Shown piece by piece: positions 16,386 through 54,167 of a stretch of 56,637 nucleotides of DNA. Position 1 is the stretch's first letter. Every line of letters starts with the position of its first letter. This DNA comes from Methanobacteriota archaeon (GTDB taxonomy: Archaea > Halobacteriota > Methanosarcinia > Methanosarcinales > Methanosarcinaceae): positions 1 through 56,637 of the forward strand of contig JAENZL010000010.1 in assembly GCA_016841265.1 (NCBI GenBank), given 5' to 3'. Made by a program: the position numbers and the translations under genes. Under the pieces are notes generated by a model, which ran no database searches, had not been told where the DNA came from, and was given only the letters and a program-made list of their open reading frames with translations.

Positions 16386-16462
16386 GTCCCATCCTTAAAA
16401 ATTCCACATTTAATAATCAACATAAGAAAACCTCGGACCCGAAAATCCCGGGGTATAATGGT

Positions 16463-16528
16463 AAATCAAGAATAAATCAAGAATAAATCAAGAATAAATC
16501 AAGAATAAATCAAGAATAAATCAAGAAT
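16463..16528. repeat. 11-bp tandem repeat, six copies, in the cofG leader
   Basis: Six perfect copies of AAATCAAGAAT end 26 bases before the proposed ATT start of cofG. The unit has no strong self-pairing. The last copy runs into an in-frame TAG that limits cofG extension upstream. Confidence 0.9.
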
Positions 16529-16554
16529 AGACCCTAGCTGGCAGGTGTTTTACC

Positions 16555-33360: not shown

Positions 33361-33456
33361 ATAATAGCCATAATAATAGCCATAATAATAGCCATAATAA
33401 TAGCCATAATAATAGCCATAATAATAGCCATAATAAAAGCCATAACAAAAACCATA
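33361..33456. repeat. 12-bp tandem repeat, eight copies, between mfnF and mfnE
   Basis: Six perfect copies of ATAATAGCCATA followed by two degenerate ones. The unit is a multiple of three and has no stop in the frame of mfnF and mfnE, so the spacer reads through openly apart from the mfnF stop. Confidence 0.95.
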
Positions 33457-33483: not shown

Positions 33484-34221
33484 ATGAGAGTGGTCGTCAA
33501 ACTGGGTGGAAGCCTGATCAGAGAAGCCCCCGGAATAATTGACAGGCTCGTTGAAGAGTTTGCTCCTGGAGAGTCTTCTCAGGAAAAGGTAGCCTCTGAA
33601 AAGGTAGCCTCCGGAAAGGAAGCTTCCGTGAGAGGCAGATCCGGAGAAGATAGTTCCGAGACATGCCCTGAGTGCATACTTATCGTGCCGGGAGGCGGAA
33701 TCTTTGCGGAGGCGGTAAGGGAGGCAGACAGGACGTTCGAGCTCGGGGCAGATGCTTCCCACTGGATGGCGGTGCTCGGGATGGAGCAGTACGCCTGCTG
33801 CCTTCTAGACAAAAGCAGAGCTGCGGCCACATACTCAATAAAGAACCCGGACCCGGGGGTTTCCATCCTCTTTCCCTACGGATTCCTGAAAGCCGAAGAC
33901 CCTCTGCCCCATTCCTGGGACGTGACTTCGGACACAATTGCGGCATGGATCGCGCAACAAACGGGTGCCCGCTTCGTAAAGATCACGGACGTGGACGGAG
34001 TGTTCCTGAAAGGGAAGCTTGTAAGAGAAATTTCTGCCCCTGAACTGGCAGCAGTCGGGACAAGCTGTACCGGAACAAGCTGTACCGACGGGGCACTTCC
34101 GGAATTCCTCCTGAAAAACAGAATGGACTGCGTGATTGTAAACGGGAAATACCCGGAAAGGGTGCTTCTGGCGGTGCACGGGAGACCTGTGCTGGGAACG
34201 GGGGTAAAGGGGAATATTTAA
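33484..34221 (+). CDS. mfnE: MfnE, (aminomethyl)furanmethyl phosphate kinase (amino acid kinase family)
   Basis: 245 aa. It phosphorylates the aminomethylfuran precursor of methanofuran. The amino acid kinase pattern is clear: VVKLGGSLI (4-12), ILIVPGGGIFAEAVREAD (from 65), and the KITDVDGVFLKGKLV segment. Between residues 28 and 64 lies a Ser/Glu/Lys-rich stretch with a duplicated EKVAS unit, which looks like an insertion into a surface loop. A second small duplication, GTSC twice, lies near residue 197. The SD is weak. It is the third methanofuran gene in a row. Confidence 0.85.
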   Translation: MRVVVKLGGSLIREAPGIIDRLVEEFAPGESSQEKVASEKVASGKEASVRGRSGEDSSETCPECILIVPGGGIFAEAVREADRTFELGADASHWMAVLGMEQYACCLLDKSRAAATYSIKNPDPGVSILFPYGFLKAEDPLPHSWDVTSDTIAAWIAQQTGARFVKITDVDGVFLKGKLVREISAPELAAVGTSCTGTSCTDGALPEFLLKNRMDCVIVNGKYPERVLLAVHGRPVLGTGVKGNI

Positions 34222-35130: not shown

Positions 35131-35495
35131 TAATCAACTCTTATTTTTCCCAAAGAATACCGATTTGCATTAAGTACCGGTTTTTACAATTTATACAATT
35201 TTTTAGCTTGTACTCCGGCAGATATGCAGGATATTTTGAGTGAAGAGATATTATATAATCCGTTGCCCTGTACATCAGAGGGGACACATTAAACATAAAG
35301 TTACAAACTCAAAGCACAAAATTAAAATGCTTTAATTCAAATGAACATTAAAAAGTGGAAATAAATCGAATTTTTGTTCATAATTGATTCTACCTTGAAC
35401 CCAAATAAAAACGAAGGAATCAAAACAAATCCCGGGACGTGTCCAGCATAAAAAACGCTGAAAAGACGAAAGAGAACGGCGGTGAAGGAAAGTGG
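35131..35495. other. Intergenic region upstream of the first PAS kinase
   Basis: 365 bases. A T run after the tRNA (35143-35150) may end its transcript. TTATATAATC at 35251-35260 is a likely TATA box, giving the kinase a leader of about 200 bases. A perfect 7-bp inverted repeat AATTAAA-ATGC-TTTAATT lies at 35320-35337. Confidence 0.5.
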
Positions 35496-37700
35496 ATGGA
35501 ACAATTTCCCGCAAAAAACCCGAACCCTGTAATCAGGGTGAAAACTGACGGGACAATCCTCTACGCAAATAGAGCAGCTGATCCCCTGATGAAAAGCTGG
35601 GATGTGGAAGTGGGAGAAAAACTCCCGGAAATCCCAAAAAGTCTCGTGAGAAAGGTAAGCGGCCGGGAAAGAGCAGAAGAACTTGAGCTGAAAGTTGGGG
35701 GAAGGGTATACCTGCTGACCTTCTATTATGATCCTGAAGAGAAAGCTGCAAACATCTACGGTTTTGACATCAGTTCCCGGGTGCAAAGAGAAGAAGAAAC
35801 TAAAAAACAGCATATTCGGCTGGAAAAAGCCCTCTGGAACAACCTCCGGATTATGGAAACCATGGTGGACACGATTCCTGCGCCCGTATATTACAAAAAC
35901 AAGGAAGGGAAATACCTGGGCTGCAACAGGCTCTTTGCAGACAAGATAATCGGGCTTCCGGAAGAAAAGGTCATAGGCTTCAAACTGACTGAACTGAAAA
36001 CAAAAATACCTCCTGCTACTGCCAGGGAGTACCAGCAACTGGATATGGAACTCCTGAGGGAAGGAGGCAAACACGTTTACGAAACAATAATCACCGATCT
36101 GGATGGGGAAACAAGAAATTTCCAAATCAGCAGAGCCGTTTACAGGGATGAAACGGAAGACTTTGCCATTCTGGTAGGGGTACTGCTGGATATAAGCGAA
36201 CTCAAAATGATTGAAAAAGCCCTCCGGGATAACCTGCAGTTCCAGGAAACCCTCCTTGACGCAATTCCTACTCCCGTATTTTACAAGGACATGGAAGGGA
36301 ATTACCTCGGCTGCAACGAGCTCTTTGCAAGAAGGATCCTTGCCATTCCAAAAGAGAGCATTGTGGGCCACTCCATGCGCTACTTTGAGGACAAAGTGCC
36401 CGGAGAATTTGCCGATGTATATGAAAAATACGACCACAAACTGCTCAGAGAAAGCGAAAGCCAGCACTACGAAGCAAAAGTAAGGTGCCCTAAAAATGGT
36501 GAAATTCGGGACTTCCTCATCACAAAAGCCCTCTACTTCGATACTGCAGGCAAGAGAGCCGGGATCGTCGGCATAATGCAGGACATCACCGAGCGCAAAA
36601 AAAGCGAAGAGATTTTGCAAAAAAGCGAAGAAAGGTACCTCCTGGCCGCTGAACAGACAGGGCAGCTAATATACGACTACGACATTGAGGCGGACAGGAA
36701 CGACTGGGCAGGGGCTATTGAGAAACTTACGGGATACAGCGTCGAAGAATTCCAGAAATTCAATATGGACGGTTGGGCCGGGCACATCCACCCGGAAGAC
36801 CGGGAAAGGGCGGTACAGGCGCATTATGACAGCTTCAAAACCGACACTCAATACAATGAAGAATACCGCTTCATGAGGAAAGACGGGAGCTATTTTTACG
36901 CCGAAGACAGAGGAATTACCCTGAAGGATAGAAGCGGCCGCATCTACAGAATACTGGGCGTAATCAAAGACATCACGGAGAGAAAAGCCGCAGAAGAAGC
37001 CCTTGAAAAAACCGGAAAAATCAGGAAGAGAGAAATCCACCACCGTATAAAGAACAACCTCCAGGTAATTTCCAGCCTTCTTGAACTTCAAGCAGAGAAA
37101 TTTGATGACGAAGAAGTCCTTGAAGCTTTCAGAGAAAGTCAGAACCGTGTTGCATCAATGGCTATTATTCACGAGGAACTCTACGGAAGCAAAGACAAGG
37201 ACATGTTGACCCTTGACTTTTCAGCATACCTCCGGAAACTGACCGCAGACCTCCTGAACTCCTACGCCCTGAAAAGCGACAATGTCAGGCTTGAACTTGA
37301 CGTAGAGGAAATATTCATCGGAATGGACACCGCCATTCCCCTGGGCACCATCATCAACGAACTGGTCTCAAACTCCCTGAAACATGCCTTTACCCCGGAA
37401 AAGTCGGGAGAAATCCGGATAAGCTTCCTGAGAACCGAAAACTATGAAAATGGCCGGAAGAACTCGAAAAACAGCGACAATGAAAACGGAGACAACGCTG
37501 AAAGTGAAGGGCAGTCCGGGTTCGTCCTGATAGTTTCGGATAGCGGGGAAGGATTCCCAGAAGAAATTGATTTCAGAAACACCGATTCACTCGGCCTCCA
37601 GCTTGTGAACACCCTTGTAAACCAGATAGGAGGTACGATCACGCTTAAAAAAGGAAGAGGCACGGAATTTTCGATCAGGTTCAGGGAACCTGAAAAGTGA
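35496..37700 (+). CDS. PAS-repeat sensor histidine kinase (HisKA_2 type)
   Basis: 734 aa, no membrane helix, so cytosolic. Order: N-terminal PAS (1-110), two PAS with the IPxPVxYK start (about 118 and 247), one PAS of the AAEQTGQL type (about 383), HisKA_2 with REIHHRIKNNLQ (about 512) carrying the phosphorylated His, and HATPase_c (about 608-734) with NELVSNSLKHAF, SDSGEGFP and SLGLQLV. The start ATG at 35496 (MEQF) has AAGGA six bases upstream and matches the start of the next kinase; a GTG at 35439 is less likely. It has the same plan as the next gene, but with one rather than ten of the last PAS type. The signal is unknown. Confidence 0.9.
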   Translation: MEQFPAKNPNPVIRVKTDGTILYANRAADPLMKSWDVEVGEKLPEIPKSLVRKVSGRERAEELELKVGGRVYLLTFYYDPEEKAANIYGFDISSRVQREEETKKQHIRLEKALWNNLRIMETMVDTIPAPVYYKNKEGKYLGCNRLFADKIIGLPEEKVIGFKLTELKTKIPPATAREYQQLDMELLREGGKHVYETIITDLDGETRNFQISRAVYRDETEDFAILVGVLLDISELKMIEKALRDNLQFQETLLDAIPTPVFYKDMEGNYLGCNELFARRILAIPKESIVGHSMRYFEDKVPGEFADVYEKYDHKLLRESESQHYEAKVRCPKNGEIRDFLITKALYFDTAGKRAGIVGIMQDITERKKSEEILQKSEERYLLAAEQTGQLIYDYDIEADRNDWAGAIEKLTGYSVEEFQKFNMDGWAGHIHPEDRERAVQAHYDSFKTDTQYNEEYRFMRKDGSYFYAEDRGITLKDRSGRIYRILGVIKDITERKAAEEALEKTGKIRKREIHHRIKNNLQVISSLLELQAEKFDDEEVLEAFRESQNRVASMAIIHEELYGSKDKDMLTLDFSAYLRKLTADLLNSYALKSDNVRLELDVEEIFIGMDTAIPLGTIINELVSNSLKHAFTPEKSGEIRISFLRTENYENGRKNSKNSDNENGDNAESEGQSGFVLIVSDSGEGFPEEIDFRNTDSLGLQLVNTLVNQIGGTITLKKGRGTEFSIRFREPEK

Positions 37701-38205: not shown

Positions 38206-41200
38206 ATGCTGGACCAGTTTCTTTCAAATAACCCGAATCCTGTTCTTAAGGTAGATGAAGAGGGGACAATCCTCTACTCGAACAAAGCTGCAAGTCCTCT
38301 GGTAGAATACTGGGGTGCCGGAGAAGGAGAAAAGCTTCCTCAACCGATGGTTAATACGATGAAGGGAATACTTTCTCAAAAAAATCACGAACAACTTGAG
38401 ATTAATACGGAGAAAAAAACGTATTCCTTCACACTCTGCCCCCTGCCGGAGGAAAACTGCGTATATATCCAGGGCTTTGACATAAGTCCTTTCAGGCAGG
38501 CTGAAGAAGAACTGAAAAAAAAGTATGAGGAGCTTGAGGCAAGGGCGGGGAAAAGGAATCTCGAACCCTCAGGGGCAAAAGCAGAGCTTTACGGGAAAAT
38601 TTCCGGGAAAAAACAGACTGATCAGGCCCCACAGGACTGCCCTTATTTTATTGAAAACCTGATAAATACCATTCCCAACCCCGTTTTCTACAAAGACCGG
38701 AACGGCGCATACATAGGCTGCAACGAGGTCTTTGCAAGCAAGATTCTCGGACTTCCCAGAGAAAAAATCATAGGAAAAACCCTTCCAGCCCTTCAAGTAC
38801 CCATCACGGAAGAGCTCAAGGAATACTGCCATAAAGTGGCTCTCGAACTGGCCAGGACCGGGAAAAAACAGGAGCAGGACCTCAAATTTGTCTGTGCAGA
38901 CGGAAAAACAAGAGACTTCATAGTCAACCGGGCTGCATTCAGGGATGAGAAAGGGGAAACTGCCGGGATAGTAGGGGTGATGCAGGACATAACCCAGCGC
39001 AAGAGCGCGGAAGAAGCTCTCAGGAACACCGTGAGTTTTCTGGGAACCCTGCTTGACGACATTCCAAGCCCTGTTTTCCAGAGAGACAAAAAAGGGATTT
39101 ACCTGAACTGTAACGAGAAATTTGCCAACCAGATAATGGGGCTCCCGAAGAAAAAAGTCATAGGAGGATCTTTTGCCGAGTTTCGGAAAAGGTTCCCTAA
39201 AGAACTTGTGGAAATCTACCAGCTGCATGACCAGGAGCTTCTCAGGCAGAGAGGGAACCAATATTACGAGACAAGGGTGGTCTGTGCAGATGGCGTAAAA
39301 AGAGACTTCCTTTTACACAAAGCCGCATACAAAGACAGTTCCGGAAACGTTAACGGAATTGTTGGTGTTATGCTGGACATAACCCAGCGCAAGGAAGCGG
39401 AAGAAATATTCCGGAAAAGTGAGGAAAGGTACCGCATAGCTGCAGAGCAAGCAGGGCAGCTAGTATATGATTACGACATTGTAACAGGGAAAATTGACTG
39501 GGCGGGAGCGATCCCTCAAATAACCGGACACACAGTTGAGGAAATACAGAAAGTGGACCTGGAAGGGTGGATAGACCATATTCATCCCGAAGACCGGGAA
39601 AGGGCCTGGAAAGCCCATGAAGAATGCATGAGTATGGGGGGCAAATTCCTTGAAGAGTACAGGTTCAGGAGGAAAGACGGAAGCTATTTCCATGCGGAAG
39701 ACAACGGAGTCTACCTCAGGGACGAAAGCGGCCAAATGTCCAGGACCATCGGGGTAATAAAAGACATAAGCGAAAGGAAAATAGCCCGGGAAATACTGGA
39801 AAAAAGCGAGGAAAGATTCCGGGCAGTTGCAGAAAGGACCGGGCAACTTGTTTATGATTATGATGTGAGGACAAACCAGAGTTCCTGGGAAGGGGCCATT
39901 GAAGAACTGACGGGATACAGTTATGAGGAGTTCCAGAAATTCATCCCGGAGGTCTGGGCTGAACACCTCCATCCAGAAGACCGCGAAAGGGCTGTTGATG
40001 CCCATAAAAAATGCCTGGAGACAGGGGAAAACTTCCATGAAGAATACAGGCTCAGGAGAAAAGACGGGAGCTACTTCTACGCAGAGGACAACGGCTTTTA
40101 CATAAAAGGCGAAGATGGTAAGGTCTCCAGGGCTCCAGGGGTAATAAAAGACATAAGCGAAAGAAAACTCGCCCAGGAAAAAATAGAAGAAAGTGAAAAA
40201 CGCTTCCGCCTCATTGCCGAGCAGACCGGACAGGGAGTCTATAACTATGATGTTGAGAGTGAACGGTTTTCCTGGGAGGGGGCTATAGAAGAGATAAGCG
40301 GATACCGTGCCGAAGACCCCTGCATTTCTTCCAGGAACCTCTGGGAATCCCATATCCACCCTGAAGATAGTAAGCAAGCAGCGGGGTACTACGAACAGGC
40401 CTTAAAAGAGGGGAAAGAATACCACCAGGAATACAGGATACGCAGAAAGGACGGAAGCTATGCTTGTGTGGAAAACAACGGGATTTTCCTGAAGGATGAG
40501 AAAGGCCGGGTATACCGGATGCTCGGCGCAATAAAAGATATAACGGAAAGAAGACTTGCCAGGGAAGAACTTGAGAAAAGTGAAGAAAGGTACAGGCTGG
40601 CAGCTGAACAGACAGGGCAAATCGTATTTGAGCATGACCTTAAAAATGAAGTTATCGACTGGGTGGGAGCTATCCAGGAACTTACAGGCTATTCTGCGGA
40701 AGAATTCCGGAAATTCGACACTGAAAAATGGGAAGAACACGTTCACCCCGAGGACAGGAAACGGGCCGTCGAAAGGATCACGGAAGCCCTCGAGAAGGGG
40801 GAAAGGTTCGTTGAGGAGTACAGGTTCAGGAGAAAAGACGGGGACTATTTCTACGTGGAGTCCTGTGGGGTAGGGATGCTCGATGAGGAGGGAAAACCCT
40901 TCAGGGCACTCGGGGTGATGAAAGACATTACTGGAGGAAGGCTTGCCAGGGAAGAACTTGAGAAAAGTGAAGAAAGGTATAGGCTGGCAGCTGAACAGAC
41001 AGGGCAGCTTGTGTTCGATTACAATATCGGCACGGGGGAAAGCGACTGGGCAGGAGCTATTGAAAAACTTACAGGATACAGCGTGGAAGAATTCCAGAAA
41101 ATCGGAAAAGACGAATGGATTTCACACGTACATCCCGAAGAGAGAATGCGGGTGGTCGAAAGCATAAAAAAGGCCCTGAAGACCGGAGATCAGATTCAGG

Positions 41201-44200
41201 AAGAATTCAGGTTCAGAAGAAAAGACGGCAGCTATTTCTACGTGGAAGACAGCGGAACGGTTCTGAAAGACAAAAAAGGACTCCCTTACAGGGTCATTGG
41301 AGTGAAAAAAGATATCACTGAAAGGAAACTTGCCCGGGAAAAGCTTGAGAAAAGCGAAGAAAAGTATCGCATCGCAGCTGAACAGACAGGGCAAATTGTA
41401 TGCGACCTTGACATGGAAACCGGAAACATTGAATGGGCAGGAGCCATTAAGGAGCTTACAGGCTATGGTTTTGAGGAATTTCAGAAATTCACCCCCGAAG
41501 TCTGGGTAGAACACATCCATCCCGAAGAACGCGAGTCCGTGCTCAAAAACGTAGAGGGCTATTTAAAGAAAGGGGGAAGGTTCAAACAGGAATTCAGGTT
41601 CAGAAGGAAAGACGGAAGCTATTTTTACGTAGAAAACCGCGGGGTCGTTCTTGAGAATGAAAGAGGACAGATGTATAGAATCCTCGGGTTAACGAAAGAT
41701 ATCACGAAACAGAAACTTGCCAGGGAAGAGCTGGAACAAAGTGAAGAGCGGTACCGGCTTATTTCGGAGAGAACAGGGCTGCTCCTCTATCACGATAGCT
41801 ACGTGGAAGGTTCGATTAACTGGTCGGGTGCTATCACGAAACTTACCGGATACAGCATGGAAGAATTCCAGAAACTTACCGAAGAAAGGTGGCTGGAGCT
41901 AATCCATCCTGAAGACCTCGAAAAGGTAAAGGCGTCCCATAAGAAATCCCAGGAGATAGGGGGAGAGTTCCATGAAGAGTACAGGTTCAGAAGGAAAGAC
42001 GGGAGCTATTTCTTCGCGGAAGATGAGGGTGTCTACTTAACAGATGAAAAAGGATGCATCTGCAAAGCTGTCGGGGTAATAAAGGACATCACGGAAAAGA
42101 AGCTTGCCCAGAAGAAACTGGAGGAAAGCGAGGAACGCTTCAGGGTCGCTGCCGAGCAGACAGGCCAGATTGTCTTTGAACACGACCACATAAATGATAT
42201 ACTTTCCTGGGCAGGCGCTATCACCGAAATTACCGGGTACGGCATCGAGGAATTCCAGAAACTCGAGGGGAAGACGTGGGCTGAGCATATCCACCCCGAA
42301 GACAGGGAAAGGGTCCTTGCAGAACTCAGGAAATTCAAGGAAAAAGACAGCCACTTCCGTGTTGAATACAGATTTAGAAGAAAGGACGGGAGCTATTTCC
42401 AGGTGGAAGACAGCGGGGTCTACCTGAGGAACGAAGAGGGGCAGATCCGCAAGGCTGTAGGAGTTATAAAGGACATCAGCCCGATAAAACTTGCCGCGGA
42501 AAAACTTCAGGAAAGCGAAGAAAGGTTCCGCATAGCGGCAGAAAAGACTGGCCAGCTTGTATACGATTTAAACATCGATTCGGACAATGTGAAATGGGCA
42601 GGAGCAATTGAGGACATTAGCGGTTACACCCATGAGGAAATCCATAAGCTGACGTCCATGAAGCTCTGGAAAAAGCACATTCACCCTGATGACTATAAAA
42701 AAGCAGTCACACATTTTGGAAATGCCCTTAAGAACGGGAGGAGTTTCTGCCAGGAATACAGGTTCAAAAGAAAGTCAGGGGACTATATTTATGTGGAAGA
42801 CTGCGGGACTTATTTGAGAGACAAAGAGGGCAGAGTATACCGGATGATCGGGGTGATAAAAGACATCACGGAGAGAAAGCGAGGAACGGAAAAATTGCGG
42901 AAAAGCGAAGAAAAGTTCCGCCTCGTTGCCGAGCAGACCGGGCAGATGGTATACGATTATGACATTCCGGGGGATAAAATTGGCTGGTCGGGAGCTATCA
43001 AAGAGCTTACGGATTACGAAGAAGAAGACTTTAAAAAGTTAGAAAGTTTGAGGGAATTAAAATGGCTCATACATCCCGATGACCGTAAAAGAGCAGTCGA
43101 TTCATATAAAAAATGCCTGGAGACAGGAGAAAGGTACTGTGAGGAATACAGGCTCAAAAAGAAGGATGGGAGCTGTATTTATGTGGAAAACCGGGGAGTA
43201 TTCCTGAAGGATGAAAATGGACGCATATACAGGATGCTCGGGACAAATAAAGACATTACACAGCTCAAGCAATCCCTTGAAAAAGTACGGGAAAGTGAAG
43301 ATAAGTACCGTTCATTTATGCGAAACTTTAAGGGGATTGCTTTCCAGGGCGATATACACTTCAGTCCGGTTTTCATGCACGGGGCTCTGGAAGAAATCAC
43401 CGGGTACACGGAAGAAGAACTTCTTTCCGGAGCTATCCCCTGGCCCCGGTTAACAGTTCCCGAAGATCGTCACCTGATCTACGAAGATGCAGCGAAACTG
43501 AGAACTATTCCGAATACCCTCATCGAACGAGAATACAGGATAAGGCACAAGAATGGAAAATTACACTGGATCTGTGAACTCATCCAGAATATTTCCGATT
43601 CTTCCGGAAAACCCTGCTTCGTGCAGGGCTCAATCTATGACATCACTGAAAGAAGGGTAGCAGAAGAAACCCTGGCAAGGACGGAGGAGATCCGCAAGAA
43701 GGAGATTCACCACCGGATCAAGAACAACCTCCAGGTAATATCCAGCCTCCTTGAACTGCAGGCCGACCAGTTCAGCGAGGAAAAAGTGGTAGAAGCATTC
43801 AGGGAAAGCCAGAACCGCGTGGCTTCCATGGCCATTATCCACGAGGAACTGTACAGGGCAGGAGATACCGAAACCCTTGATTTTGCAGCATATTTACGGA
43901 AACTGACTTCAGACCTTCTCCGCTCATATACGATCAGGAAAGAGGACGTAAAGCTGAAGCTGGAGGTAGAGGAGATATTCCTGGGAATGGACGCGGCAAT
44001 CCCATTAGGGATCATTGTTAACGAACTTGTATCCAATGCCCTGAAACATGCTTTCCCTGCCGGAAAGAAAGGAGAAATCCACGTCAAACTTTTCCGAAAA
44101 GAAAGTTCAGGAAATAAAAGTATAAGTAACATCACAAATAATAACGATATAAGGAGTAGTAACGAATATAATCAGTTCACATTGATTGTTTCGGATAACG

Positions 44201-44355
44201 GGTTGGGTTTTCCGGAAAGCATTGACTTCACAAATACCGATTCTTTAGGTTTGCAGCTTGTAAATACCCTTGTAGAACAGCTGGAGGGTACGATCGAACT
44301 TGAAAGGAACGGAACAACGGTTTTCAGGATTAAGTTTCTGGAAAGTGGACAATGA
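38206..44355 (+). CDS. Giant multi-PAS sensor histidine kinase (14 PAS domains)
   Basis: 2049 aa, cytosolic. Three divergent PAS domains (about 1-100, 150 and 280) are followed by ten tandem PAS units of the same type, starting at residues 412, 541, 670, 799, 928, 1057, 1186, 1315, 1444 and 1574. The steps are exactly 129 residues (387 bases) eight times and 130 once. Units share AEQTGQ, a W-x-GAI step, HPEDRERA, YRFRRKDGSYF and GVIKDITERK. A different PAS (FMRNFKGIAFQ, about 1704) precedes HisKA_2 (EIHHRIKNN, about 1833) and HATPase_c (about 1925-2049; NELVSNALKHAF, SDNGLGFP). Clear SD GAGGGG. A receiver gene follows 34 bases later and is its likely partner. Confidence 0.92.
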   Translation: MLDQFLSNNPNPVLKVDEEGTILYSNKAASPLVEYWGAGEGEKLPQPMVNTMKGILSQKNHEQLEINTEKKTYSFTLCPLPEENCVYIQGFDISPFRQAEEELKKKYEELEARAGKRNLEPSGAKAELYGKISGKKQTDQAPQDCPYFIENLINTIPNPVFYKDRNGAYIGCNEVFASKILGLPREKIIGKTLPALQVPITEELKEYCHKVALELARTGKKQEQDLKFVCADGKTRDFIVNRAAFRDEKGETAGIVGVMQDITQRKSAEEALRNTVSFLGTLLDDIPSPVFQRDKKGIYLNCNEKFANQIMGLPKKKVIGGSFAEFRKRFPKELVEIYQLHDQELLRQRGNQYYETRVVCADGVKRDFLLHKAAYKDSSGNVNGIVGVMLDITQRKEAEEIFRKSEERYRIAAEQAGQLVYDYDIVTGKIDWAGAIPQITGHTVEEIQKVDLEGWIDHIHPEDRERAWKAHEECMSMGGKFLEEYRFRRKDGSYFHAEDNGVYLRDESGQMSRTIGVIKDISERKIAREILEKSEERFRAVAERTGQLVYDYDVRTNQSSWEGAIEELTGYSYEEFQKFIPEVWAEHLHPEDRERAVDAHKKCLETGENFHEEYRLRRKDGSYFYAEDNGFYIKGEDGKVSRAPGVIKDISERKLAQEKIEESEKRFRLIAEQTGQGVYNYDVESERFSWEGAIEEISGYRAEDPCISSRNLWESHIHPEDSKQAAGYYEQALKEGKEYHQEYRIRRKDGSYACVENNGIFLKDEKGRVYRMLGAIKDITERRLAREELEKSEERYRLAAEQTGQIVFEHDLKNEVIDWVGAIQELTGYSAEEFRKFDTEKWEEHVHPEDRKRAVERITEALEKGERFVEEYRFRRKDGDYFYVESCGVGMLDEEGKPFRALGVMKDITGGRLAREELEKSEERYRLAAEQTGQLVFDYNIGTGESDWAGAIEKLTGYSVEEFQKIGKDEWISHVHPEERMRVVESIKKALKTGDQIQEEFRFRRKDGSYFYVEDSGTVLKDKKGLPYRVIGVKKDITERKLAREKLEKSEEKYRIAAEQTGQIVCDLDMETGNIEWAGAIKELTGYGFEEFQKFTPEVWVEHIHPEERESVLKNVEGYLKKGGRFKQEFRFRRKDGSYFYVENRGVVLENERGQMYRILGLTKDITKQKLAREELEQSEERYRLISERTGLLLYHDSYVEGSINWSGAITKLTGYSMEEFQKLTEERWLELIHPEDLEKVKASHKKSQEIGGEFHEEYRFRRKDGSYFFAEDEGVYLTDEKGCICKAVGVIKDITEKKLAQKKLEESEERFRVAAEQTGQIVFEHDHINDILSWAGAITEITGYGIEEFQKLEGKTWAEHIHPEDRERVLAELRKFKEKDSHFRVEYRFRRKDGSYFQVEDSGVYLRNEEGQIRKAVGVIKDISPIKLAAEKLQESEERFRIAAEKTGQLVYDLNIDSDNVKWAGAIEDISGYTHEEIHKLTSMKLWKKHIHPDDYKKAVTHFGNALKNGRSFCQEYRFKRKSGDYIYVEDCGTYLRDKEGRVYRMIGVIKDITERKRGTEKLRKSEEKFRLVAEQTGQMVYDYDIPGDKIGWSGAIKELTDYEEEDFKKLESLRELKWLIHPDDRKRAVDSYKKCLETGERYCEEYRLKKKDGSCIYVENRGVFLKDENGRIYRMLGTNKDITQLKQSLEKVRESEDKYRSFMRNFKGIAFQGDIHFSPVFMHGALEEITGYTEEELLSGAIPWPRLTVPEDRHLIYEDAAKLRTIPNTLIEREYRIRHKNGKLHWICELIQNISDSSGKPCFVQGSIYDITERRVAEETLARTEEIRKKEIHHRIKNNLQVISSLLELQADQFSEEKVVEAFRESQNRVASMAIIHEELYRAGDTETLDFAAYLRKLTSDLLRSYTIRKEDVKLKLEVEEIFLGMDAAIPLGIIVNELVSNALKHAFPAGKKGEIHVKLFRKESSGNKSISNITNNNDIRSSNEYNQFTLIVSDNGLGFPESIDFTNTDSLGLQLVNTLVEQLEGTIELERNGTTVFRIKFLESGQ
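39439..43314 (+). repeat. Ten in-register PAS-encoding units
   Basis: Units begin at 39439, 39826, 40213, 40600, 40987, 41374, 41761, 42148, 42535 and 42925; all are 387 bases except the last two, at 390. The junction sequences before 40600 and 40987 are almost identical over about 60 bases, showing recent duplication or exchange between units. Elsewhere the copies have diverged. Confidence 0.9.
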
Positions 44356-44389: not shown

Positions 44390-44791
44390 ATGAAAAAGGC
44401 AAAAATTCTGGTTGTCGAAGACCAGAACATCGTGGCTCTGAATATCAGAAACAAGCTTAAGAATTTAGGCTATACGGTTCCGGCTACCGCGGCAACCGGA
44501 GAAGAAGCCATAAGGAAAGCTGAACTGACGAATGCTGATCTTGTTTTGATGGACATCATGCTAAAAGGGGATATGGACGGGATTTCAGCGGCTCAGGAGA
44601 TCAAGTCCCATCTGGGGATTCCGATCCTGTACCTGACTGCTTACACGGACGAAGAAACCCTTAGCAGGGCAAAAATGACCGAACCCGAAGGGTATATCTC
44701 GAAGCCCTTTAAAGAAGAAGACCTGCACAGCAACATTGAAATGGCGTTGCACAAACACAAGCTGGAAAGGGTAGAAAAAGAGGCGGAATAA
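44390..44791 (+). CDS. Single-domain response regulator (receiver only)
   Basis: 133 aa CheY-like receiver with no output domain. Acidic pocket E10-D11, phosphorylated Asp D55 in LVLMDIML, T83 and K105 (SKPF) are all present, so it should accept phosphate. A short charged tail follows the domain. SD GGGGA precedes the ATG. It lies directly after the giant kinase. The receiver at 47793 is nearly the same protein. Confidence 0.93.
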   Translation: MKKAKILVVEDQNIVALNIRNKLKNLGYTVPATAATGEEAIRKAELTNADLVLMDIMLKGDMDGISAAQEIKSHLGIPILYLTAYTDEETLSRAKMTEPEGYISKPFKEEDLHSNIEMALHKHKLERVEKEAE

Positions 44792-44830: not shown

Positions 44831-45151
44831 CCAAAAGGGAAGATTCACATAAACCTCTGCGGAACGGAAAATATTACCGCGAACCCGGAGGATTGCGGGA
44901 CAGGTTCCGAATGCAGGAAAGAGCAGGGCTCGCAGGCGAAAAAGGATTTGCCGTTAGAAAAGGGTTTACAGTTTACACTAATTGTGGCCGATGACGGGCC
45001 GGGCATCCCGGAAGAAATCGATTTTAGAAATACTAGTTCCCTGGGGCTCCAGCTAGTAAATATCCTTGTTGAACAGATAGATGCCTCCATCGAGCTTAGA
45101 AGAGATGAAGGGACGGGTTTCTCGATCAGGTTCACGGACAAGGGGACGTGA
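44831..45151 (+). pseudogene. Decayed C-terminus of a HisKA_2 kinase (HATPase fragment 1)
   Basis: Open frame of about 106 codons reading PKGKIHINL, a Cys- and Gly-rich linker, then the ATPase G-boxes VADDGPGIPEEIDFRN and SLGLQLVNILVEQ. It matches the last third of the HATPase domain of the neighbouring kinases, but the His box and N box are missing and there is no credible start, so it cannot be an active kinase. A TTG at 44948 could start 67 residues. It lies between the first receiver gene and the third kinase. Confidence 0.75.
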
Positions 45152-45233: not shown

Positions 45234-47249
45234 ATGAATATACTGGAAGCAGGAAGAAAAAAATTAGGGGTAGAGCACTCCCAGCTGATATTCTGGATAG
45301 CCGTTATGGGACTGCTTTACATAATCAGCCTGGAAAACTACCTCCTCTTCCACAGCCTTGTAGAATTGTTCAGCATCCTGGTAGCATACGTGATTTTCCT
45401 GATAATATGGAAATCGAGAGCTCTGCTGGAAAACCGCTACCTTCTGCTTATAGGCATAGCTTACTTGTTCGTCGGAAGCTTTGACCTCCTGCATACCCTC
45501 GCATACAAAGGTATGGGAGTCTTCCCCGAATATGGCTCAAACCTTCCCACCCAGCTCTGGATAGCCGCCAGGTTCCTTGAAAGCGCATCTCTCCTTGCAG
45601 CTCCGCTGCTTTTCAGCCGCATTTCGAGAGACGGGGAAAAGGAGGCAAAATTCCGGGAAAACGGCCTGTTCGCCAGGAAAATTTTCCATATATATACCGG
45701 AATTGCTGTTCTTTTCCTCGTCGCGATTTTCTATTGCAAAAATTTCCCGGAATGCTATATTGAAGGTTCGGGACTTACTCATTTCAAAGTATCAAGCGAA
45801 TACATCATCTCTGTTATACTATTTTGCTCACTGATCCTCTTGCGTACAAAAAAGAACATGTTCGAGCCACACATTTTCAGGATGCTTTCAGCATCCATAA
45901 TCCTTACGATCTTCGGGGAACTGGCTTTCACTTTCTACATTGACGTGTACGGATTTTCCAACCTTATAGGCCACTATTTCAAACTGCTCTCTTTCTACCT
46001 AATCTACAAAGCAATTGTGGAAACAGGATTCGAAAACCCTCACAGCATCCTTTTCAGGGAGCTGAAGCTTAGCGAAGAATCATTAAAAGAGCAGGCAATT
46101 GCCCTCCGTGACGACCAGGGCCTCATTTACAGTATGCTCGGGGTAAAGAGAGATATGCCGGAGCAAGAAACTGCAGTTGGAAACCTGCAAAAAGGAGAGG
46201 AACACTACCTGTCATTCATGCAAAACTTCCAGGGGATCGGGTTCCAGCTTGACAGGAACCTGAAATCGATATTCCTGCATGGGGCTGTAGAGGAAATCAC
46301 TGGTTACACTAAGGAGGATTTCCTTTCCAGGGAAATGGAATGGATCGAAATCATCCTTCCCGAATACCACCCTTTGTTTCTTGAAAAATTGGAAAATGTC
46401 AGTTCCAACCCGGATAGCTCCACCGAACTGGAATACCGGATCAGGAGAAAAGAAGGAGAAATAAGGTGGATCAGGGAAATTATCCGGAAGCTCCCCGGAA
46501 ATCCCGGGAACCAGGGGCAGTACCAGGGTTCGGTTTATGACATCACGGAACGTAAAATGGCTGAAGAAGCCCTGGAAAAAATAGATAAAATCCGCACGAA
46601 AGAAATCCATCACCGGATCAAGAACAACCTGCAGGTGATCTCATCTCTCCTGAGCCTCCAGGCGGAAAAATTCGGAGACGAGGAAGTGCTTGAAGCCTTC
46701 CGGGAAAGCCAGAACCGCGTCATATCTATGGCCCTAATTCATGAGGAACTTTATAAAGGGGACAAAGTAGATACTCTTGATTTTGCAGCCTATTTCCGGA
46801 AACTGACCGCAGATCTTCTCAGTTCATACAGGGTCGGAAAAGATGACATCAGCCTGGAGCTTGACCTTGAGAAAATTTACCTGGGGATGGACACGGCAAT
46901 CCCCCTCGGAATCATTGTCAATGAACTGGTTTCCAACGCCCTGAAACACGCGTTCCCTTCCGGAAAGAAGGGGGAAATCCGCATAAAACTCAGGAGAACG
47001 GAAAATTGTGGAAGATCAGCTGCATTTATAGGGCCTTGTGATGAAAGCGAAGGCTGCAGGAAGAATAAAAATACGTTTACACTTATGATTTCGGACAACG
47101 GGAGGGGAATTCCGGAAGAGCTCGACTTCAGGTGCGCCGATTCTCTGGGGCTCCAGCTAGTAAATATCCTTGTGGAGCAGATCGAGGGCAATATAGAACT
47201 TAATAACAGCACCGGGACGGAGTTCAGGATCGATATAAAGGATAACTAA
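45234..47249 (+). CDS. Membrane sensor histidine kinase (MASE3-like, PAS, HisKA_2)
   Basis: 671 aa. The first ~270 residues hold about seven or eight membrane helices and resemble the MASE3 sensor (FDLLHTLAYKGMGVFP, QLWIAARFLES). Around residue 291 is a short piece, RDDQGLIYSMLGVKRDMPEQE, that matches only the end of a PAS unit of the giant kinase. A full PAS (SFMQNFQGIGFQL, about 324), HisKA_2 (EIHHRIKNN, about 456) and HATPase_c (NELVSNALKHAF, SDNGRGIP) follow. The PAS and catalytic half closely resemble the end of the giant kinase. SD GAGG precedes the ATG. Confidence 0.9.
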   Translation: MNILEAGRKKLGVEHSQLIFWIAVMGLLYIISLENYLLFHSLVELFSILVAYVIFLIIWKSRALLENRYLLLIGIAYLFVGSFDLLHTLAYKGMGVFPEYGSNLPTQLWIAARFLESASLLAAPLLFSRISRDGEKEAKFRENGLFARKIFHIYTGIAVLFLVAIFYCKNFPECYIEGSGLTHFKVSSEYIISVILFCSLILLRTKKNMFEPHIFRMLSASIILTIFGELAFTFYIDVYGFSNLIGHYFKLLSFYLIYKAIVETGFENPHSILFRELKLSEESLKEQAIALRDDQGLIYSMLGVKRDMPEQETAVGNLQKGEEHYLSFMQNFQGIGFQLDRNLKSIFLHGAVEEITGYTKEDFLSREMEWIEIILPEYHPLFLEKLENVSSNPDSSTELEYRIRRKEGEIRWIREIIRKLPGNPGNQGQYQGSVYDITERKMAEEALEKIDKIRTKEIHHRIKNNLQVISSLLSLQAEKFGDEEVLEAFRESQNRVISMALIHEELYKGDKVDTLDFAAYFRKLTADLLSSYRVGKDDISLELDLEKIYLGMDTAIPLGIIVNELVSNALKHAFPSGKKGEIRIKLRRTENCGRSAAFIGPCDESEGCRKNKNTFTLMISDNGRGIPEELDFRCADSLGLQLVNILVEQIEGNIELNNSTGTEFRIDIKDN

Positions 47250-47404: not shown

Positions 47405-47749
47405 GCTTATTTCCAACTCCCCGATAAATGCTTTTAAGGGAGGAAAAGGAGGAAAAAATCCTTATCAAATTTTTCCAAACAACCCACAATAAAAATAAAG
47501 TTATAAGTAGAAACAGAAAAATTAATAAAAATGGTAATAGTAAGTACAGTACTCAGTTCTCATTGATCGTTTCGGATGACGGGTCGGAATTTCCGGAAAA
47601 TATTGATTTCAGGGATACAACCTCCAGGGTTACAACTCGTAAACTCCCTGGTGGAACAGCTCGAAGGAAACATCGAACTTGAAAGAAACAAAGGCACTAA
47701 ATTCATTATCCGATTCGGAGGAACTGGGGGACCGAAAAATGGCAGTTAA
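47405..47749 (+). pseudogene. Frameshifted C-terminus of a HisKA_2 kinase (HATPase fragment 2)
   Basis: From about 47405 the DNA follows the end of the giant kinase gene (the SNALKHAF region onward), including its Asn-rich linker and FSLIVSDDGSEFPENIDFRDT. Around 47617 the frame breaks: SLGLQLVN becomes, in another frame, [20 protein letters not shown], which runs to TAA at 47747-47749. The key ATPase Gly in DNGxGFP is also lost (DDGSEFP). It is clearly broken. It lies directly before the second receiver gene. Confidence 0.8.
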
Positions 47750-49434: not shown

Positions 49435-52400
49435 ATGTTAAAACTGAAGCTAGGAACCCGAAAGCTGATTTCAATTTCAATTTGCTTTTTAATGCTGCTT
49501 GCTACAAGCTCAGCAGCATTAGCAGCATCAGGTGATTTAGCAAATGTTCAAGTATCAAAAGTTAGTGGAACTGTCACGGTAACAAACGAATATGGTACTG
49601 TTGTTTATAAAGGTTCAGACGATACAGATGCTATTGAAGCAGCTATAAAGGCAATCGATAGCGGCGTAATCCTCTTCCAAAAAGGCGAATATAATATCGA
49701 CCGTACACTTCGTTTAAAATCCGATATAACCTTCATTGGAGAAGAAGGAGTAGTATTTGACTGCTTTAAAGGTGTAGCGTTCAGTACCGGAACAGGCGCA
49801 TATTCTTCGTCAACAATATCACTATCAAATGACGTCTCCAAAGGTGATACACAAATTCAGTTGTCGAGTGTTACCGGGTTAAACGTCGGAGATCACGTAA
49901 AAATTTCAGATGATCTCAGTTTCCGCAATCGCAACAAGGAAACTGATTACAAAAACGGAGAGATAGCACAAATAGTTTCTATCAGCGGCAATTCGATTAC
50001 AGTTGATCGTTCTTTGTACGATGATTATACTGTAGCTAGAAACGCCAAAGTAAGAAAAATGGTGATGTTAGAGAATATCACATTTGAAAATATTAATTTC
50101 GTAGGTTCTGGAATCGAGACGAGTTCCACTGCACTCAGTTTCTACGCCACGAAAAATATTACCATCAAAAATTGTGAGTTTTCAGACTTTGGTGTCCGTG
50201 CTACATTTTTCTTAGATTGTTTGGACGTCACAATAGATTCTAACACCTTCAGGCATATTTTCTACACTGGCCTGGGGTATTCGATTCAAATTGTCAATGC
50301 ATGTGACAATTTCATAATAACAAATAACTCCTTCCTGGAATTAGGAAGGCACTATATTGCTGTTGGCGCTAACACAGGGGGCAATTACGAAGACGGACTT
50401 GCCAGACGTTTAACCATATCCGATAACGTCTTTGAAGATTGTGCCGACGAAGCCATAAACACACACTACCCCAATAGGTGTGTGACGACCATTACAGGGA
50501 ATGATATCTACAACTGCAGAAAAGGTATTGAACTAAGCAACGGCGATAGTGTTATAAAAAACAATAATATCGTTGGAAGCTATGTAACTGCAATCGAAAC
50601 ATACGGATCAGGCAGTCATCTTGTAGAAGGAAATTACTTTAACGAAAATTATAGGTCTTTCAGGTGTGAAGCCACAACCGAAATAAGAGGTAATTTATTT
50701 GACAACGGCGGGTATATCTTACCGACAATCAATACCATAATTGAGAATAATACATTCAAGAATTATTCAGGATATATCATCTACGCTGTCGGCTCAAGCA
50801 GTTCATACCTGCAAAACATTGAAATCTCCAATAACATATGTGAAGATTCCCTGACAATGGCAATGAAATTAAACTATGCCAAGAATGTTAACGTAAATAA
50901 CAATAACTTTAGAGGGTATCTTGAATTTGGAAGCTGCGATAATGTAGAAGTCGACGGCAACAGAATAAACTCTCCTGCCTCTTCGGGAGTCAGAGTTATT
51001 GATGCGAAGGGTCCCTACACGATAACAGATAATGAGCTTAAAGCTGATAGTGTAGGAATTTCCCTTGAAAACACCGGAACGTCTTCTATCGGAGAGATAA
51101 TTCAAATCGCACGCAACGCCATTGATGCTCCTAAAGCATATTCTAATGATGACTATTCGAATGTCATCGTAAAAGAAGGAACTCCTGAAATTGGAGACCC
51201 TGCGACAGGAGCACCTGATGTCGAAGACCCTACGACAGAAGATCCTGATGTCCCGACGACTCTTACTGGAATGCAAGATTCCCGCCTCCGTGAAGGTTCC
51301 CCTGACACGGTCTTCAATGACGTTCGTTACATCGACCTTGGAGGTAGAGATGGAATCGGCGCGTACAGAGACCTTGTCATTTTCGACTTAAGTGAATACG
51401 AAGATACCGAACTGATCGAAAATGCGACCCTTTCCCTCTTCTGGTACTACCCTGAAGGAACGGAAAGACCCGAGGACACAGTTGTCGAAATTTACAGGCC
51501 GGAAGCCTGGAACCCCAACTACGTCACCTGGAACAGCAGGGACCTTAATACCCCGTGGACCAATTCCGGAGGAGACTGGTATGACCGGAATAATGCCTCC
51601 CAGGGAAGCACACCCTATGCAACGATTACCATCAAAGGCAGTGACGTTCCTGATAGCAGCTACCATGAACTTGACGTAACCGAACTTGTTAAAGAGTACG
51701 TGAGCGGCGAGTACGAGAATACGGGATTCCTGATCAAAGCCCACACGGAAAGCGGAAACTACATCGCTTTCTACAGCAGTGACTGCGGAATAACGGAATC
51801 TACCCCGAAACTCGATGTGGAACTGAAACCCGAGTCTGAAGATATACCTGAGACTGGAGATACACCTGATGAAACTCTCGTCCTGAGCAACCTTCAGGAT
51901 TCCCGCCTCCGTGAAGGTTCTCCCGACAAGGTATACAATGACGTTCGTTATCTCGACCTTGGTGGCAGAGACGGAGTAGGCGCGTACAGAGACCTTGTCA
52001 TGTTCGACTTAAGCGAATTGGACAATGCCAAACTGATCGGAAATGCGACCCTTTCCCTCTTCTGGTACTACCCTGAAGACACAGAAAGGCCCGAGGACAC
52101 AATTATCGAAATTTACAGGCCTGAAGCCTGGAACCCCAACTATGTCACCTGGAACAGCAGGGACCTTAACACTCCCTGGGTAAACGCCGGTGGAGACTGG
52201 TTTGACCTGAATAATGCCCCCCAGGGCAGCACACCCTACGCAACGATCACCATCAAAGGCAGTGACGTCCCTGACGACAGCTACCATGAAATTGACGTAA
52301 CCGAACTTGTGAAAGAGTACGTGAACGGTGAGTACGAGAATACGGGATTCCTGATCAAAGCCCGCAAGGAAAGCGGAAATTACATGGCTTTCTACAGCAG

Positions 52401-53043
52401 TGATTGCGGAATAACGGAATCAACCCCGAAACTCGATGTAACACTGAAACCCGAACCTGTAGTTCACGTCCTTAATAACCCCCAGGACAGCCGCCTTCGG
52501 GAAGGCTCTCCTGACAAGGTATACAATGACGTCCGTTATCTTGACCTTGGAGGCAGAGACGGGGTAGGCGCGTACAGAGACCTTGTCCTGTTCGACTTAA
52601 GCGAATTAGACGATGCTGAAAGTATCGAAAGTGCGGCTATCTCCCTCTTCTGGTACTACCCGGCCGGAATAGAAAGACCCGAGGACACAATTGTCGAAAT
52701 CTACAGGCCTGAAGCCTGGAACCCCAGCTATGTTACCTGGAACAGCGGGGACCTTAACACCCCCTGGGTGAACGCCGGAGGAGACTGGTATGACCGGAAT
52801 GATGTCTCTCAGGGAAGCACCCCGTACGCAACAATAACCATTAAGGGAAGTGACTTCCCTGACAACGGCTACCATGAGTTTGATGTAACCGAACTTGTGA
52901 AAACGTACGTGAGCGGCGAATACGAGAATACGGGATTCCTGGTCAAAGCCCGCACGGAAAGCGGAAACTACGTCGCCTTCTGCAGCAACGACTATGAAGA
53001 CGAAAATCAGAGACCTGTGATGACTGTATCGGAAAATGTGTAA
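49435..53043 (+). CDS. Secreted beta-helix protein with three disaggregatase-type repeats
   Basis: 1202 aa. Signal peptide 1-31 (ends SSAALAA). Residues about 60-590 form a right-handed parallel beta-helix with many short N-x-F/I repeats, a fold common in polysaccharide-degrading or -binding proteins. Three repeats starting DSRLREGSPD follow at about 609, 815 and 1010, each about 195-205 residues, ending GFLIKARxESGNYxAF; they resemble the repeats of Methanosarcina disaggregatase, which loosens the polysaccharide matrix of cell packets. The helix part is AT-rich, while the repeats are GC-rich. An 805-bp stretch (49949-50753) is identical in the next gene. SD AGGTGAT. The enzyme activity is not proven. 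Confidence 0.85.
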   Translation: MLKLKLGTRKLISISICFLMLLATSSAALAASGDLANVQVSKVSGTVTVTNEYGTVVYKGSDDTDAIEAAIKAIDSGVILFQKGEYNIDRTLRLKSDITFIGEEGVVFDCFKGVAFSTGTGAYSSSTISLSNDVSKGDTQIQLSSVTGLNVGDHVKISDDLSFRNRNKETDYKNGEIAQIVSISGNSITVDRSLYDDYTVARNAKVRKMVMLENITFENINFVGSGIETSSTALSFYATKNITIKNCEFSDFGVRATFFLDCLDVTIDSNTFRHIFYTGLGYSIQIVNACDNFIITNNSFLELGRHYIAVGANTGGNYEDGLARRLTISDNVFEDCADEAINTHYPNRCVTTITGNDIYNCRKGIELSNGDSVIKNNNIVGSYVTAIETYGSGSHLVEGNYFNENYRSFRCEATTEIRGNLFDNGGYILPTINTIIENNTFKNYSGYIIYAVGSSSSYLQNIEISNNICEDSLTMAMKLNYAKNVNVNNNNFRGYLEFGSCDNVEVDGNRINSPASSGVRVIDAKGPYTITDNELKADSVGISLENTGTSSIGEIIQIARNAIDAPKAYSNDDYSNVIVKEGTPEIGDPATGAPDVEDPTTEDPDVPTTLTGMQDSRLREGSPDTVFNDVRYIDLGGRDGIGAYRDLVIFDLSEYEDTELIENATLSLFWYYPEGTERPEDTVVEIYRPEAWNPNYVTWNSRDLNTPWTNSGGDWYDRNNASQGSTPYATITIKGSDVPDSSYHELDVTELVKEYVSGEYENTGFLIKAHTESGNYIAFYSSDCGITESTPKLDVELKPESEDIPETGDTPDETLVLSNLQDSRLREGSPDKVYNDVRYLDLGGRDGVGAYRDLVMFDLSELDNAKLIGNATLSLFWYYPEDTERPEDTIIEIYRPEAWNPNYVTWNSRDLNTPWVNAGGDWFDLNNAPQGSTPYATITIKGSDVPDDSYHEIDVTELVKEYVNGEYENTGFLIKARKESGNYMAFYSSDCGITESTPKLDVTLKPEPVVHVLNNPQDSRLREGSPDKVYNDVRYLDLGGRDGVGAYRDLVLFDLSELDDAESIESAAISLFWYYPAGIERPEDTIVEIYRPEAWNPSYVTWNSGDLNTPWVNAGGDWYDRNDVSQGSTPYATITIKGSDFPDNGYHEFDVTELVKTYVSGEYENTGFLVKARTESGNYVAFCSNDYEDENQRPVMTVSENV
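49949..50753 (+). repeat. 805-bp identical tract, copy 1
   Basis: Compared by eye, this segment has the same bases as 54685-55489 with no difference seen and the same length, while sequence on both sides differs at many positions. It lies inside the beta-helix coding part. Confidence 0.9.
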
Positions 53044-53724: not shown

Positions 53725-54167
53725 ACCAAAAATATTTTATAATAGGGTCGCATAAATGCCCAGAGTTCACTCAGGAAATTTAACTAAATAATAAATAGAA
53801 TCTTGTTTGGTGAGTTGCCAAGGCTGAACACCTATACTCATTCGAACAGGAGGAATTAAACTAAAAAAGAAACCATGAATATCCTATAATTTATGACAAA
53901 TTTTCATTACAAAAAAACAGAAGCATCGACTTCGTTCCCACCCATTCCGTACGACTGATATTTTCCTGGACTGAAAATATTCAGAGCGGAAGCTCTCTGC
54001 AAATGCTATTCCCAACAAAAAAGAAGTGGAGAGAGGGGAGGAAAAAATCTTAAATGCAGTTTATATTAAATTTTGAAAATTTATGTAAACTTGCAAAATA
54101 ACCCCAAAAAATTCAATCTACCTTATACCCAAAATTCCCTAGATTGTCCAACCCCAAAGGTGATACA
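53725..54167 (+). promoter_or_regulatory. Conserved long leader of the second surface-protein gene
   Basis: Counterpart of 48990-49434. A TATA-like ATTTTATAATAG (about 53734-53745) lies about 430 bases before the ATG. Shared blocks are CTCAGGAAATTTAAC, AGGAGG (53848-53853) with TTAAACTAAAA, ACAGAAGC followed by CTTCGTT, and TCCCTAGATTGTCCAACCCC before SD AGGTGAT. The AGGAGG box is too far from any start codon to act as a normal SD. Confidence 0.65.

What the first reader, a model, noticed from the sequence alone, without database searches (positions are those of the whole stretch)
39439..43314. Ten PAS domains amplified in exact 387-base register inside one kinase
Unit starts were located base by base: eight successive steps are exactly 387 and the last is 390, so indels have almost been excluded while the sequence diverged. 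The kinase just upstream has the same plan with only one such unit, pointing to in-gene amplification. The near-identical junctions before 40600 and 40987 show the process is recent or continuing. Whether ten PAS units act as a long spacer, a multi-ligand sensor or a cooperative array is open. A 2049-residue soluble kinase is extreme.
Basis: seen in the sequence. Interest (0 to 1): 0.78.

Follow-up and report, generated by a model that had tools for sequence, protein, structure and literature searches.

The report
Mosaic ten-PAS array in methanogen kinase
A 2049-residue sensor kinase of a Methanosarcina-type archaeon carries ten evenly spaced PAS sensing domains; the ten are old and distinct, not freshly copied, and relatives carry 6 to 10 of them in the same order with single units apparently added, lost or swapped between species.

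Summary
ORF 38206-44355 holds ten PAS_3-type units at 39418-43293, spaced 387 bases eight times and then 390. The 66-base junctions before units 4 and 5 are 64/66 identical, more than protein constraint explains (0 of 300 synonymous shuffles).

The reading "recent or continuing in-gene amplification" is not supported. The units are only 42-60% alike with near-saturated silent sites, and the upstream kinase's single unit is as close to them as they are to each other. In seven orthologous genes the units match by position: orthologous units are 62-94% identical, in the order 1 to 10 with members missing. M. acetivorans C2A has 1-2-7-8-9-10. The 129-residue step occurs in 93 of 103 adjacent pairs from 31 proteins, so it is a family property tied to a fixed-length helical linker, not a mark of youth.

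What is active is unit gain, loss and probable exchange between lineages. Kinase-module, unit-6 and unit-7 trees conflict (AU p = 1e-3, 2e-4, 6e-40), with a sharp switch in the unit 7/8 linker (~42097).

Most likely function: a cytoplasmic HisKA_2 kinase integrating several inputs along one helical PAS stack and signalling to the adjacent REC-only protein. Ligands are unknown.

The parts
38206..44355 (+). multi-PAS histidine kinase gene, 2049 aa, no predicted membrane span
   Evidence: 13 PAS S-box stretches; highest 19-residue hydropathy 1.75
38647..39003 (+). N-terminal PAS (aa 148-266), outside the unit subfamily
39043..39390 (+). second PAS (about aa 280-395), outside the unit subfamily
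39418..39804 (+). PAS unit 1 (387 nt)
39805..40191 (+). PAS unit 2 (387 nt)
40192..40578 (+). PAS unit 3 (387 nt)
40579..40965 (+). PAS unit 4 (387 nt); found only here, in G001 and in BL5
40966..41352 (+). PAS unit 5 (387 nt)
41353..41739 (+). PAS unit 6 (387 nt); tree rejects own+UBA9310
41740..42126 (+). PAS unit 7 (387 nt); divergent version shared only with G001
42127..42513 (+). PAS unit 8 (387 nt)
42514..42903 (+). PAS unit 9 (390 nt; one extra residue inside the PAS core)
42904..43293 (+). PAS unit 10 (390 nt; one extra residue inside the PAS core)
40555..40620 (+). 66-base junction before unit 4, 64/66 identical to 40942-41007
40942..41007 (+). 66-base junction before unit 5, partner of 40555-40620
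42096..42098 (+). sharp switch of ancestry in the unit 7/unit 8 linker
43294..43671 (+). terminal PAS next to the kinase (47 bits to the unit HMM, against 191-205 for the units)
43702..43929 (+). HisKA_2 domain with HHRIKNNL motif
43999..44337 (+). HATPase_c domain
44390..44791 (+). REC-only response regulator 34 bases downstream; 94-97% identical next to the array kinase in UBA9310, G001 and BL5
36624..37010 (+). single unit of the same subfamily in the upstream kinase (35439-37700)

Best explanation
A cytoplasmic HisKA_2-family sensor kinase whose sensory part is a stack of ten old, individually maintained PAS_3 units. Shown: each unit is a PAS core plus a helical linker; the DIT-to-next-TG distance is 25 residues in every pair measured; units are conserved by position across species under purifying selection; copy number differs between species by whole units; some units or blocks in one gene have a different history from their neighbours and from the kinase module. 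Inferred: because all linkers have the same length and are similar in DNA sequence, a unit can be inserted, deleted or exchanged by homologous recombination without changing reading frame or helical phase. In the dimer, ligand or redox-driven changes in individual units would twist or shift the shared helical axis, their effects would add along the stack, and the terminal PAS would pass the sum to the DHp/CA kinase, which phosphorylates the neighbouring REC-only protein. Which ligands the units bind is unknown.
For: Positional orthology: tree of 109 units and best-hit table. Own 1-10; G001 2-3-4-6-7-8-9-10; BL5 1-2-4-4'-7-8-9-10; G083 and STD2_179 1-2-3-5-6-7-8-9-10; KYL-1 1-2-3-5-6-K-7-8-9-10; M. 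acetivorans C2A 1-2-7-8-9-10; four-unit paralogues 1-2-7-8. Purifying selection: dN/dS mostly 0.11-0.3 in orthologous units with dS above 0.2. Old duplication: silent sites saturated or nearly so within the array. Fixed linker: 25 residues in 78/78 measured pairs while the core varies. AF2 model of units 4-6: mean pLDDT 90.8, PAS domains joined by continuous helices of 23-24 residues; best two-domain PDB match is the FixL PAS tandem, 8js5. Mosaicism: dS own-UBA9310 is 0.05-0.16 in neighbouring genes and the kinase module but 0.33, 0.42 and 1.61 in units 5-7; dS own-G001 is 0.18-0.31 in neighbours but 0.08-0.11 in units 6-7 and 0.50-0.72 in units 2, 3, 8, 9, 10. Kinase tree rejects own+G001 (p 0.001); unit 7 rejects own+UBA9310 (p 6e-40); unit 6 rejects it (p 2e-4).
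Against: No ligand was identified and no cavity could be measured, so signal integration is inference. Specificity-type columns (conserved within a position, different between positions) are few (4) and lie mostly in variable helices or loops, which does not separate sensing from neutral drift. Array length varies between orthologues (6-10), so no fixed set of inputs is required. The pTM of the three-unit model is only 0.55 and it is a monomer, so relative domain placement and dimer form are not established. The linker claim is weak as a constraint test: few independent indel events exist, so finding none in about a fifth of the unit is not significant.
Confidence: 0.6

Rival explanations
1. 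Recent or ongoing in-gene amplification by unequal crossing over or slippage.
For: Near-identical 66-base junctions flank unit 4; copy number differs between orthologues; BL5 carries two unit-4-like copies, 83% identical DNA, dS 0.57.
Against: Units are 42-60% identical with near-saturated silent sites; they group by position across species; no two whole units in this gene exceed 68% DNA identity.
Confidence: 0.07
2. The array is a passive spacer or mechanical rod that positions the kinase, with the PAS fold reused as a structural brick and no ligands.
For: Unit number varies from 6 to 10 in orthologues; linker length is fixed; a mechanical role in signal transmission is described for the PAS domain of BvgS (PMC3726324, title and abstract only).
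Against: Interchangeable bricks would be free to homogenise, yet each position keeps its identity across species (62-94% against 42-60%) and is under purifying selection.
Confidence: 0.27
3. The conflicting unit histories come from hidden paralogy: an ancestor had more units and lineages kept different ones, with no exchange between lineages.
For: Unit presence and absence in the zone 3-6 looks like differential loss from a longer array; the divergent unit 7 could be an ancient paralogue.
Against: Paralogue sorting leaves silent divergence at or above the species background, but own-G001 dS in units 6 and 7 (0.11, 0.08) is below neighbouring genes (0.18-0.31), and units 8-10 of own are closer to KYL-1 (0.31-0.41) than the kinase module is (0.59). 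The below-background values rest on about 100 silent sites per unit.
Confidence: 0.2
4. Some of the mosaic pattern is a metagenome assembly chimera in UBA9310.
For: The UBA9310 gene is split over two contigs inside the array and has a premature TAG.
Against: The G001 pattern alone (single-contig 4.2 Mb genome) shows units 6-7 at dS 0.08-0.11 and units 2, 3, 8-10 at 0.50-0.72 against a background of 0.18-0.31.
Confidence: 0.1

Closest known systems
Cytoplasmic multi-PAS histidine kinases of archaea, especially methanogens (Galperin et al. 2018, PMC5847659; M. acetivorans kinases, PMC11784639)
   Same: Soluble, many PAS domains, HisKA/HATPase output, REC-only partner; tandem duplication of kinase genes is described for archaea.
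   Different: Ten units of one subfamily in one run with a constant 129/130-residue step. I did not find this gene family or its positional orthology described in the papers searched.
Histidine kinases with extreme PAS numbers (up to 19 in cyanobacteria such as Aulosira tenue; Xing et al. 2023, PMC10468136)
   Same: Long PAS runs in one kinase.
   Different: This one has 13 PAS S-box matches, so it is not the record; those proteins' unit histories were not examined here.
Regularly spaced tandem PAS receptors and the engineered LOV-heme-PAS kinase YHF (reviewed in PMC6798134)
   Same: Constant helical linkers between consecutive PAS modules; YHF shows that two stacked PAS sensors can act cooperatively on one kinase.
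   Different: YHF has two engineered inputs; here there are ten natural units with unknown ligands.
FixL PAS tandem (PDB 8js5) as fold
   Same: Two consecutive PAS domains joined by a helix superpose on the model (target TM 0.72-0.74).
   Different: 19% identity. By the alignment, unit 5 has Val where FixL has the haem-ligand His (ligand identity from general knowledge); read by eye, the other units have Ala or Val there.

Membership tests
HisKA_2 histidine kinase | HisKA_2 domain with phospho-acceptor His motif | tested here: met
   PF07568 107.8 bits, cut-off 22.3; HHRIKNNL at aa 1835
HisKA_2 histidine kinase | ATP-binding CA domain with N and G boxes | tested here: met
   PF02518 38.4 bits, cut-off 26.4; NELVSNALKH, DNGLGF and GLQLV present
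HisKA_2 histidine kinase | autophosphorylation and phosphotransfer to a regulator | not testable with these tools
   needs protein; a REC-only gene lies 34 bases downstream and stays next to the kinase in UBA9310, G001 and BL5
PAS_3 (PF08447) domain array | each unit matches the PAS_3 fold | tested here: met
   858.6 bits, 11 stretches; PAS secondary structure in the model of units 4-6 at pLDDT 90.8
Recently amplified tandem repeat | copies within one gene more alike than orthologous copies between species | tested here: not met
   42-60% within the array, 62-94% between species at the same position
FixL-type haem PAS | haem-ligand His in the F-helix | tested here: not met
   the HMMER alignment puts Val of unit 5 at that position; read by eye, the other units have Ala or Val
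LOV (FMN) PAS | NCRFLQ-type photoactive Cys | tested here: not met
   no Cys in unit 5 at the aligned DCRFLQ site of 7r5n; no NCR motif in any unit
Multi-input PAS signal integrator | different units bind different ligands and act on one kinase | not testable with these tools
   needs binding and kinase assays

The most novel reading that the evidence does not exclude
The array works as a natural cassette locus: PAS units are exchanged singly or in blocks between species and genera by homologous recombination, with the conserved linker serving both as the DNA homology for crossover and as the phase-neutral protein joint, so that lineages reassemble their sensory input set while the kinase output stays fixed.
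Probability: 0.35. Interest if true: 0.68.

Novelty: new member of a known kind. Interest (0 to 1): 0.42.

Why it matters
Orthologues in culturable Methanosarcina differ by whole units (M. acetivorans C2A has 1-2-7-8-9-10; others add 3-6). That gives a natural deletion and insertion series for asking whether a long PAS run integrates inputs or only transmits force. It also suggests that a sensor kinase's input side can be rearranged between lineages without disturbing its output, a natural counterpart to engineered PAS fusions.

Tried and rejected
Recent amplification: rejected on silent-site saturation and positional orthology. The 387-base register as evidence of youth: rejected, since it is shared by 93 of 103 pairs across 31 proteins. 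A G001-like donor of units 4-7 as the simple story: dropped as the only reading after flanking genes showed own-G001 background dS is 0.18-0.31, so units 6-7 are slightly below background and units 2, 3, 8-10 are well above it; direction of transfer is left open. Two of the three segmentation breakpoints, at 39810 and 40180, were set aside because G001 lacks unit 1 and UBA9310 has a different unit at position 3. Absence of linker indels as proof of helical phase constraint: too few independent events. Specificity-determining columns as a test of ligand diversity: inconclusive. FixL-type haem and LOV motifs: not present by alignment. Plasmid search: no match.
Full report
WHAT IS THERE. The ORF at 38206-44355 encodes 2049 residues. 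Pfam and NCBIfam give PAS domains, HisKA_2 and HATPase_c, with 13 PAS S-box stretches. Two PAS domains (about aa 148-395) precede the run, one (aa 1697-1822) follows it, and no stretch is hydrophobic enough for a clear membrane span (highest 19-residue mean 1.75). The run of ten starts at 39418 and ends at 43293, with steps of 387 eight times and then 390; unit 10 is also 390. All ten score 191-205 bits against a unit HMM while the terminal PAS scores 47, so they are one subfamily, but the subfamily is not confined to this gene: other kinases of this genome hold units of 139-208 bits.

HOW OLD ARE THE UNITS. Within the gene the units are 42-60% identical in protein and 54-68% in DNA, and third-position identity is 36-55%. 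Among units 1-8, silent-site difference is 0.64-0.91 and too saturated to correct in 16 of 28 pairs. The upstream kinase's single unit is 50-64% identical to the ten, so it cannot be separated from them by distance. In a tree of 109 units from Methanosarcinaceae, units group by position and not by genome. Best hits give the same map: own 1 to 10; G001 2-3-4-6-7-8-9-10; BL5_bin.6 1-2-4-4'-7-8-9-10; G083 and STD2_179 1-2-3-5-6-7-8-9-10; KYL-1 1-2-3-5-6-K-7-8-9-10, where K resembles the upstream kinase's unit; M. acetivorans C2A (recognised by its 5,751,492-base chromosome; the name rests on my own knowledge of that length) 1-2-7-8-9-10. UBA9310, the nearest species, is split over two contigs and reads 1-2 | 2b-X-5-6-7-8-9-10. 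A second set of kinases, one of them in the same STD2_179 genome, has only 1-2-7-8, so those four unit types predate that gene duplication. The array therefore grew stepwise and long ago: mainly in the zone between 2 and 7, and after 8.

WHY THE EXACT REGISTER. Over 103 adjacent unit pairs from 31 proteins the step is 129 residues in 93 and 130 in 8. The linker from DIT to the next TG motif is 25 residues in all 78 pairs where both motifs could be found; the variation lies in the PAS core. The constant step is thus a property of the family. It fits a helical linker whose phase matters: the AF2 model of units 4-6 (58-row alignment, mean pLDDT 90.8, pTM 0.55) shows continuous helices of 23-24 residues joining the domains, and the closest solved two-domain arrangement is the FixL tandem. 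Heptad dependence of linker length and regularly spaced PAS runs are known from other receptors (PMC6798134). The data here are too few to prove phase constraint, because there are only a handful of independent length changes.

THE NEAR-IDENTICAL JUNCTIONS. 40555-40620 and 40942-41007 match at 64 of 66 bases, beyond 300 synonymous shuffles, while units 4 and 5 as wholes are only 68% identical in DNA. The sequence is of the unit-5-start type: the junctions before unit 5 in UBA9310 (61/66) and STD2_179 (60/66) resemble it more than the junction before unit 4 in G001 does (54/66). So the start of unit 4 here seems to have been overwritten by, or joined through, a unit-5-type start. That is the kind of scar expected where a unit was inserted or replaced by recombination in the linker; gene conversion of the patch is an equally good reading.

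MOSAIC HISTORY. Neighbouring genes and the kinase module give a consistent background: own-UBA9310 dS 0.05-0.16 and own-G001 0.18-0.31. Array units do not follow it. Own-UBA9310 is 0.07 in unit 1 and 0.08-0.16 in units 8-10 but 0.27, 0.33, 0.42 and 1.61 in units 2, 5, 6 and 7. Own-G001 is 0.08-0.11 in units 6-7 but 0.50-0.72 in units 2, 3, 8, 9, 10. Informative sites switch sharply at 42096-42098, in the linker between units 7 and 8; units 4-7 against unit 8 to the gene end differ with Fisher p about 1e-85 (sites are linked, so this is descriptive). Trees conflict: the kinase module rejects own+G001 (p 0.001) and groups own+UBA9310; unit 7 rejects own+UBA9310 (p 6e-40), as does unit 6 (p 2e-4); for units 8-10 a clade of own, UBA9310 and G001 is rejected (p 0.009). 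These groups were partly chosen after seeing the distances, so the less extreme p values should be read with care. Hidden paralogy can explain missing units, but not silent divergence below background. Direction and donors are not resolved.

HOW IT MOST LIKELY WORKS. Shown: intact kinase motifs, ten PAS units under purifying selection, a fixed linker, and an adjacent REC-only gene that stays beside the array kinase in UBA9310, G001 and BL5. Inferred: the protein is a parallel dimer whose PAS units share a helical axis; input to any unit biases the axis; the terminal PAS and DHp read the sum; phosphate goes to the REC-only protein. I give multi-input integration about 0.6 and a mainly mechanical rod about 0.27. 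Against the rod: each position keeps its own identity across species. Against integration: no ligand is known and array length is not conserved. The search of variable columns did not decide it.

COMPARISON WITH THE KNOWN. Archaeal kinases are often cytoplasmic with multiple PAS domains, and tandem kinase duplications are described (PMC5847659). M. acetivorans has 53 kinases, most of them soluble, and mostly REC-only regulators (PMC11784639). Kinases with up to 19 PAS domains are known (PMC10468136), so ten or thirteen is large but not exceptional, and orthologous ORFs of 2090 and 2095 codons exist. I found no paper in the held library describing exchange of single PAS units between species in a sensor kinase; most subscription journals are not covered.

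VERDICT. The object is a new member of a known kind, with an unusual, testable evolutionary pattern of unit gain, loss and probable exchange.

Noticed in passing
window 44966-45145: Remnant of a histidine-kinase CA domain (60 residues, 62% identical to the array kinase's C-terminus) between the REC gene and the next kinase: a truncated gene scrap.
   Followed up: partly
window 47446-47722: Second set of kinase C-terminal fragments (43-64% identical) just before the second REC gene, another decayed kinase.
   Followed up: no
window 45234-47249 compared with L094 and L121: The kinase slot beside the second REC gene holds a MASE3 membrane kinase here, but a 1081- to 1110-codon multi-PAS kinase lies beside the matching REC gene in UBA9310 and KYL-1, as if the sensor gene had been replaced.
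   Followed up: partly
L093:11750-11752: In UBA9310 the array gene has one in-frame TAG in unit 1 where the window's gene has a Gln codon; in a pyrrolysine-using lineage this could be read through, or be an assembly error or a broken gene.
   Followed up: partly
window 26127-26333, 33361-33456, 16462-16529: Short tandem arrays (17 bases x 12, 12 bases x 8, 11 bases x 6), the second just upstream of an MfnE-like gene (33484-34221).
   Followed up: no
window 49435-53043 and 54144-56504: Two large ORFs with DNRLRE domains (three matched stretches and one) downstream of the kinase cluster.
   Followed up: no
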